DNA of 34,452 bases from Parcubacteria group bacterium (GTDB lineage Bacteria > Patescibacteriota > Minisyncoccia > Portnoybacterales > UBA2143). Where the stretch lies: contig NYYU01000032.1 of assembly GCA_002685955.1 (NCBI GenBank), positions 1 through 34,452 of the forward strand, given 5' to 3'. The notes beneath the pieces were generated by a model that was given only the letters and a program-made list of their open reading frames with translations, did not search any database and had not been told where the DNA came from. The translations under genes and the position numbers were made by a program. Shown piece by piece: positions 3,018 through 3,679 of the stretch (its first letter is position 1; each line of letters starts with the position of its first letter).

Positions 3018-3679
3018 TAGAAAACCTGGCAACCTGGCTGGCTTTAGCCGTCTTAGAAGTTGTTGGCAAGATAGGGTATTTAGGCATTACTCTTTTAATG
3101 GCCCTGGAGAGCTCTTTTATTCCTTTCCCTTCAGAGATTGTTATTCCACCGGCTGCCTATTTAGCCCAACAAGGTCAATTCAATATTTATTTAGTCATTT
3201 TATCCGGAATCATTGGCAGTTTGCTGGGCGCTTTATTCAACTATTATCTAGCTCTGAGATTAGGCCGTAAAGTGGTTTACGGGTTGGCCCGATACAAGTT
3301 CTTTAGATTTTTGCTGATTAATCCAGCCAAGATTGAAAAATCAGAAAAATATTTCTTAAAATATGGAAACATTTCTACTTTTATTGGTCGTTTAGTGCCG
3401 GTGCTCAGACAGTTAGTTTCTCTGCCGGCTGGATTTTCAAAAATGAGCCTGAAAAGTTTTGTTTTTTACACTTTTCTCGGTTCCGGTATTTGGACAGTTA
3501 TTCTAGCGATTTTAGGATATGTTTTTGGTTCTAACCAGGAAAAGTTTGAGAAATATTATACGGAGATTTCATGGTTTTTCATCATTCTTATCCCAGTTTT
3601 AGTTATTGTTTTAATTATTAAAAAATCCCGACGTAAAGTCGGGATCCCGACTCAAAAGACGTCGGGAAAAATTCAATAA
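3014..3679 (+). CDS. DedA/SNARE-associated family membrane protein with palindrome-encoded C-terminal tail
   Basis: LLMALESSFIPFPSEIVIPPAAYLA, multi-pass hydrophobic profile; C-terminus KKSRRKVGIPTQKTSGKIQ is encoded by the palindromic element at 3626-3667. Confidence 0.85.
   Translation: MIENLATWLALAVLEVVGKIGYLGITLLMALESSFIPFPSEIVIPPAAYLAQQGQFNIYLVILSGIIGSLLGALFNYYLALRLGRKVVYGLARYKFFRFLLINPAKIEKSEKYFLKYGNISTFIGRLVPVLRQLVSLPAGFSKMSLKSFVFYTFLGSGIWTVILAILGYVFGSNQEKFEKYYTEISWFFIILIPVLVIVLIIKKSRRKVGIPTQKTSGKIQ
3626..3667. repeat. 42-nt composite palindromic element, in-frame in CDS
   Basis: tcccgacgtaaagtcgggatcccgactcaaaagacgtcggga: hairpins CCCGAC/GTCGGG and TCCCGAC/GTCGGGA, with outer arms TCCCGACGT/ACGTCGGGA. 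Near-identical 42-mer at 31879-31920. Confidence 0.9.

What the first reader, a model, noticed from the sequence alone, without database searches (positions are those of the whole stretch)
3626..3667. In-frame palindromic element encodes the tail of a DedA-like protein
42 nt (14 codons), composite hairpins, encoding (S)RRKVGIPTQKTSGK at the extreme C-terminus. It is nearly identical to the element in trmD, an unrelated gene 28 kb away. In Rickettsia, palindromic elements (RPEs) insert in-frame in CDSs; this appears to be an analogous system in a different lineage.
Basis: partly seen in the sequence, partly recalled or inferred. Interest (0 to 1): 0.8.

Follow-up and report, generated by a model that had tools for sequence, protein, structure and literature searches.

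The report
Palindromic DNA inserted inside CPR genes
A 42-letter, double-hairpin piece of repetitive DNA has inserted itself, without breaking the reading frame, into many unrelated genes of a tiny-genome CPR bacterium and its relatives, adding short peptides of no evident function to proteins much as 'Rickettsia palindromic elements' do, but in a different phylum.

Summary
Window 3626-3667 is a 42-nt element of two tandem hairpins, three codons before the stop of a DedA/VTT gene. It is 38/42 identical to the trmD copy (31879-31920). The whole 919-kb Patescibacteria genome (nearest named relatives: Portnoybacteria) holds about 12 places; nine are in-frame in eight genes (DedA, TrmD, DUF4012, uS9, uS12, uL23, NusA twice, bL31). 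Of the 120 nearest DedA and 120 nearest TrmD proteins only one besides the window's own carries it. The same DNA is read in at least three frames, stems covary, and intergenic, tRNA-fragment and probable 23S rRNA copies exist, so the unit is DNA, not a peptide motif. A covariance model finds it in 86 of 392 sampled genomes of the class and elsewhere in the phylum, in-frame in rpoB, rpoC, tpiA, ssb, cca, pcm, dinB and others. Copies nest in each other's loops, and compounds spread as units. It works like RPEs and intragenic REPs but belongs to neither by size or end tag. The mobilising enzyme is unknown; links to Y1 and GIY-YIG nucleases were tested and not established.

The parts
3626..3667 (+). 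Element copy 1 (42 nt): hairpin 1 at 3626-3644, hairpin 2 at 3645-3667; encodes SRRKVGIPTQKTSG in the DedA frame
   Evidence: covariance model match 66.0 bits, E 2.4e-14 (this copy was in the model)
3014..3679 (+). Host gene 1: DedA/VTT-domain membrane protein; element lies three codons before the stop
   Evidence: Pfam PF09335 E 8.7e-22; homologues lack the tail
31879..31920 (+). Element copy 2 (42 nt, 38/42 identical to copy 1); encodes PRRKVGIPTQKASG
   Evidence: model match 65.0 bits, E 4.2e-14 (this copy was in the model)
31651..32319 (+). Host gene 2: trmD, tRNA (guanine37-N1)-methyltransferase; element lies in a hypervariable loop between a helix and a strand
   Evidence: Pfam PF01746 E 1.7e-53; absent from the two solved TrmD chains aligned and from 118 of 120 listed homologues; residues 79-89 are a low-confidence loop in the model
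14192..14272 (+). Element copy 3 (81 nt compound); encodes VPTQVRRSGTDSDQSIGGRDPDPKGIGK, a different frame from copies 1 and 2
   Evidence: outer part 14243-14272 and inner part 14203-14242 both match the model
14203..14242 (+). Second element (TCCGAC type) nested in the loop of hairpin 1 of copy 3
   Evidence: E 1.8e-7; this inner copy was in the model; the same compound sits in ssb of another genus (L096/L104)
13873..16338 (+). Host gene 3: DUF4012 protein
   Evidence: Pfam PF13196 E 1.5e-32

Best explanation
The segment is one copy of a small dispersed (mobile or formerly mobile) palindromic DNA element of Patescibacteria, about 38-42 nt, built as two inverted hairpin units: YCCCGACG-loop-GTCGGGR followed by YCCCGAC-loop-CGTCGGGR. 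SHOWN: it is multicopy and dispersed; orthologues of many hosts lack it; stems covary while loops change; it is read in at least three frames; copies in the frame where the common loop GTAAA would give TAA carry stop-free loops; copies sit at protein ends or loops, usually just after AG or AA; copies nest in hairpin loops, and a compound recurs in unrelated genes of different genera. INFERRED: new copies arise when a hairpin-forming strand is cut and rejoined or copied at a purine-rich site by a nuclease or transposase acting in trans. Insertion is not aimed at a frame; purifying selection removes copies that shift the frame, stop translation or disturb a fold, leaving tolerated in-frame peptides. 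The peptide most likely has no function of its own.
For: Twelve places in the genome, nine in-frame in eight named genes. Empty sites: DedA and TrmD, and pcm, cca, polX, tpiA, uL18 and a coupling-protein-like gene against this genome. Copies in SSB, bL12, bL25, bS6, RpoB, RpoC, PolX, a beta-CASP RNase, TPI, DinB, uL18, an epimerase, ScpA and an HrcA-like protein elsewhere. Covariation: 92.7% of cells paired, 12 cells changed on both sides against 3.3 in shuffles. Frame and loop: 0 of 13 copies read in the APTQ frame have a stop in it against 27 of 36 others, P 1.9e-6. Target: A at -2 in 87% and G at -1 in 66% of 61 copies. Distribution: 86/392 genomes of the class, 31/389 across the phylum, none in three members of the same family. 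Nesting and shared compound.
Against: No mobilising enzyme is identified and no insertion polymorphic between strains was seen, so present mobility is not shown. The frame test is partly circular, because copies that break a frame are not recognised as coding. The DedA tail and TrmD insert are 12-13 of 14 residues alike in relatives only 68-75% identical overall (P0008, P0123); gene conversion or recent spread could explain this, but so could selection on the peptide. Hosts look rich in ribosomal proteins and NusA/RNAP; this was not tested statistically. Model E-values are rough and most matches appear on both strands.
Confidence: 0.86

Rival explanations
1. REP/RAYT system: the element is a REP dimer (BIME/REPIN-like) mobilised by an IS200/IS605-type Y1 transposase now lost from this genome.
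For: The inverted hairpin pair resembles REP dimers; 20 of 23 element-bearing genomes searched encode Y1 transposases; a fragment of one remains here; some copies follow GTAG.
Against: Of 39 sampled Y1 loci only one (L312) holds this element at all, several hundred nt from the gene; most genes are bounded by other palindromes. G005 and G006 have the element without a Y1 match, and so do G120, G356 and G619. GTAG is not a constant part.
Confidence: 0.25
2. A small GIY-YIG nuclease, abundant in these genomes, cuts hairpin or tRNA-like DNA and spreads the palindromes.
For: Three copies (two in L231, one in L248) lie exactly between TAG and CTCA of a truncated tRNA 5' end beside a GIY-YIG ORF. GIY-YIG genes often abut tRNAs or carry other palindromes. 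Element-bearing genomes have more GIY-YIG genes (5.0 against 3.1 each, P 0.0007; phylogeny not corrected).
Against: In 43 GIY-YIG loci sampled without regard to the element none carries a full copy. G006 (98% complete) and G076 have the element but no GIY-YIG gene at E 1e-10.
Confidence: 0.15
3. A functional peptide tag or RNA-binding tail: the shared RRKVGIPTQKASG is selected as protein.
For: Basic, flexible peptide on several translation proteins; well kept in relatives.
Against: The same DNA is read in other frames and on the other strand as unrelated peptides; intergenic and tRNA-fragment copies exist; covariation is at nucleotide level.
Confidence: 0.04
4. Regulatory mRNA hairpin (attenuator or 3'-end stabiliser) between dedA and tpiA that happens to overlap the coding end.
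For: Stable hairpins 13 nt before the next start codon; REPs are thought to stabilise mRNA (PMC3733652).
Against: Copies lie deep inside trmD, nusA, rpoB, cca, tpiA and dinB; no T-run follows.
Confidence: 0.06
5. Assembly or binning artefact.
For: The genome is a fragmented assembly (58 contigs).
Against: Each copy has unique flanks in a conserved gene, and independent assemblies of other genera carry the element.
Confidence: 0.01

Closest known systems
Rickettsia palindromic elements (RPE; Ogata et al. 2000, 2002, as reviewed in PMC2229807 and PMC10969869)
   Same: Dispersed palindromes inserted in-frame in unrelated conserved genes, also intergenic and in RNA genes; host genes stay intact
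   Different: RPEs are described as 105-146 bp with long terminal inverted repeats; this is 38-42 nt, two tandem hairpins, in an unrelated phylum; no RPE sequence was compared here
REPs / BIMEs / REPINs and RAYT (IS200/IS605-like) transposases; GTAG and CGTC superfamilies (PMC3733652)
   Same: 20-40 nt hairpin units, inverted dimers, some copies inside genes
   Different: No constant unpaired GTAG or CGTC tag; not at the ends of any of 39 sampled Y1 genes; in this genome most copies are inside genes, while REPs are mostly extragenic
Wolbachia palindromic elements and coding palindromes of Methanocaldococcus jannaschii (cited in PMC2229807)
   Same: Protein-coding palindromic repeats outside Rickettsia
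   Different: Other lineages; sequences not compared here

Membership tests
Rickettsia palindromic element (RPE) | Palindromic repeat inserted in-frame in unrelated protein genes, absent from orthologues | tested here: met
Rickettsia palindromic element (RPE) | Length about 105-146 bp with long stem | tested here: not met
   38-42 nt, 81 nt when nested
Rickettsia palindromic element (RPE) | Sequence homology to one of the RPE families | not tested
   No RPE sequences were fetched
Rickettsia palindromic element (RPE) | Occurrence in Rickettsia | tested here: not met
   Nearest named homologues are Portnoybacteria/Parcubacteria. A strict exact pattern in 85,488 species gave five stretches: four titled Parcubacteria, Nomurabacteria or Patescibacteria and one 'uncultured bacterium'
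REP (GTAG or CGTC superfamily) | Short hairpin unit, often in inverted dimers | tested here: met
REP (GTAG or CGTC superfamily) | Unpaired GTAG or CGTC tag at one end | tested here: not met
   Flanks vary; only AG/AA is usual at the 5' side
REP (GTAG or CGTC superfamily) | Linked RAYT gene bounded by the same repeat | tested here: not met
   None of 39 Y1 genes sampled is bounded by it
MITE of a cut-and-paste transposon | Terminal inverted repeats matching a full-length element, with target-site duplication | tested here: inconclusive
   Ends are complementary (CCCGACG/CGTCGGG), but no full-length parent and no constant duplication was seen

The most novel reading that the evidence does not exclude
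Patescibacteria carry a phylum-wide, still active class of protein-coding palindromes that insert preferentially into hairpin-forming or A-rich sites (their own loops, tRNA and rRNA genes, Lys-rich codons), spread by a small GIY-YIG or other structure-specific nuclease rather than a RAYT, and have supplied many of the lineage-specific loops and tails of CPR ribosomal and polymerase proteins.
Probability: 0.2. Interest if true: 0.85.

Novelty: new variant of a known kind. Interest (0 to 1): 0.64.

Why it matters
In-frame palindromic insertions were first described as peculiar to Rickettsia. An independent, much shorter and very widespread system in the CPR, in core genes such as rpoB, nusA and ribosomal proteins, offers many insertion events with empty sites. 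With these one can ask how repeated DNA creates protein segments, which sites proteins tolerate, and what moves such elements in genomes of under 1 Mb. It also warns that odd loops in CPR proteins, and motifs shared by unrelated families, can be DNA repeats.

Tried and rejected
Peptide-level function: rejected by use of several frames and by non-coding copies. RAYT gene bounded by the element: searched in 39 Y1 loci, not found. GIY-YIG link: three striking copies in two genomes, but none in 43 GIY-YIG loci taken without regard to the element, so kept only as a rival. An exact-pattern scan of 85,488 species gave only five stretches; the covariance model showed this pattern was far too strict. 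The RPE paper looked up by id is not held. Structure of TrmD: modest model (pLDDT 70), used only to place the insert in a low-confidence loop. A fold search was left out because TrmD is identified by sequence.

Full report
Observation. The 42 nt at 3626-3667 are real and as described: two tandem hairpins, in frame as SRRKVGIPTQKTSG three codons before the DedA stop. The trmD copy at 31879-31920 differs at four positions. A third copy, 14192-14272, sits in a DUF4012 gene in another frame and has a second element nested in it. Shuffles give 0.3 core matches in the window where three are seen, and the reversed pattern none in the genome.

Genome-wide picture. The window is one of 58 contigs of a 919-kb genome. 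I read all of it and found about twelve places. Nine are in-frame in eight genes: dedA, trmD, the DUF4012 gene, rpsI (uS9), rpsL (uS12), rplW (uL23), nusA twice, rpmE (bL31); the host families were confirmed with Pfam. The other three are outside genes or at gene borders: between a bL33-like gene and a tRNA-like stretch, between pheT and gyrB, and one on contig 24. Closest named relatives of DedA and TrmD are annotated Portnoybacteria or Parcubacteria.

It is an insertion. DedA orthologues in five genera of the family end at ...IIKKK or similar. Of the 120 best DedA proteins only one besides the window's own has the tail; of the 120 best TrmD proteins only one besides the window's own has the insert. 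The solved TrmD chains aligned lack ten residues there, and the predicted structure places the insert in a low-confidence loop between a helix and a strand. The same TrmD loop holds other peptides in other species, several of them encoded by other palindromes (VYPARRGK, SFPRKRESR...IPAQGRND, LRQGFGG), so it is a tolerated site. Going the other way, pcm, cca, polX, tpiA, rplR and a coupling-protein-like gene carry the element in relatives, and the homologue in this genome lacks it.

The unit is DNA. The same DNA is read as RRKVGIPTQKASG, APTQGRGPDPEGVG or PDVKSGSRLKASG, and on the other strand as e.g. SDASVGVPTKTSG. The common loop GTAAA would place TAA in the APTQ frame. None of 13 copies read in that frame has a stop there, whereas 27 of 36 other copies do (P 1.9e-6). 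This test is partly circular, since frame-breaking copies are not called coding, but it shows which copies survive. Stems covary: 12 cells changed on both sides against 3.3 expected from shuffles, and pairing collapses when partners are slid by one to three columns.

Distribution. A covariance model of 16 copies gives matches at E up to 1e-4 in 86 of 392 genomes of the class and at E up to 1e-6 in 31 of 389 genomes drawn from the phylum. Three members of the same family have none even at 1e-3, which serves as a negative control. Counts of matches are inflated because a palindrome usually matches on both strands. Relatives carry it in ssb, rplL, rplY, rpsF, rpoB, rpoC, a beta-CASP RNase, dinB (twice), scpA, an hrcA-like gene, an epimerase and an FAD oxidase. 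Some copies sit in tRNA fragments, and one lies in what reads as the 3' part of a 23S rRNA gene (the 23S assignment is by eye, not from a model).

Architecture and target. The second hairpin is the inverted form of the first: in both, the unpaired G next to the stem faces outward (CCCGACG...), so the element is a head-to-head pair as in BIMEs (by inspection). Sixty-one copies are preceded by A at -2 in 87% and G at -1 in 66%, with A-rich right flanks. Four of the twelve places here carry a second, 39-nt element inside the loop of hairpin 1. One such compound occurs both in the DUF4012 gene here and in ssb of another genus, so compounds spread as units.

Mechanism. I favour non-directed insertion of a hairpin-forming strand by an enzyme acting in trans, followed by purifying selection that keeps in-frame, stop-free copies at protein ends and loops. 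The enzyme is not known. Y1 (RAYT-like) genes are common in element-bearing genomes, but most are bounded by their own, different palindromes, and only one of 39 sampled stretches has this element at all, several hundred nt from the gene. GIY-YIG ORFs are tempting because three copies lie in truncated tRNAs beside such ORFs, but none of 43 other GIY-YIG loci carries a full copy, and G006 has the element with neither gene found.

Comparison. It works like RPEs and like intragenic REPs. It is not an RPE by size or lineage, and not a tagged REP by end motif or linked RAYT (membership table). Protein-coding palindromes have been reported in Rickettsia, Wolbachia, M. jannaschii and, as intragenic REPs, in other bacteria (PMC2229807, PMC3733652, PMC10969869). 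I found no report for CPR in the open-access library searched, which is not proof of absence. Hence: new variant of a known kind.

Noticed in passing
window 8001-8292 and 8269-8646: A small GIY-YIG nuclease ORF (8017-8271) lies between 24-bp inverted arms and abuts the RNase P RNA gene; in related genomes such ORFs often abut tRNAs or truncated tRNAs holding palindromes of other families.
   Followed up: partly
window about 11231-11297 and about ten other places in the genome: Another inverted-repeat family, CCCCGTTAGAAA...TTTCTAACGGGG, about 65-75 nt; a GIY-YIG gene of a relative (L184) is bounded by similar arms.
   Followed up: partly
window 21457-21476, and a CLPARQG-coding stretch in ORF 11299-12450: CCTGCCTNCCGGCAGGCAGG-type palindromes occur at about 13 places in the genome, several inside ORFs: a second family with possible coding copies.
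   Followed up: partly
L303-L332, L168-L176: Most Y1 (RAYT-like) transposase genes across the phylum are flanked on both sides by a short palindrome that differs from gene to gene.
   Followed up: partly
L231, L248, L178, L258, L280, L274: Truncated tRNA genes with a palindrome inserted, then a GIY-YIG ORF, then usually the intact tRNA: looks like a tRNA-targeting mobile unit.
   Followed up: partly
L246:320-360: The element lies inside what looks like the 3' part of a 23S rRNA gene.
   Followed up: no
window 31879-31920: The TrmD linker is a hotspot that holds unrelated, in part palindrome-encoded, peptides in other species.
   Followed up: partly
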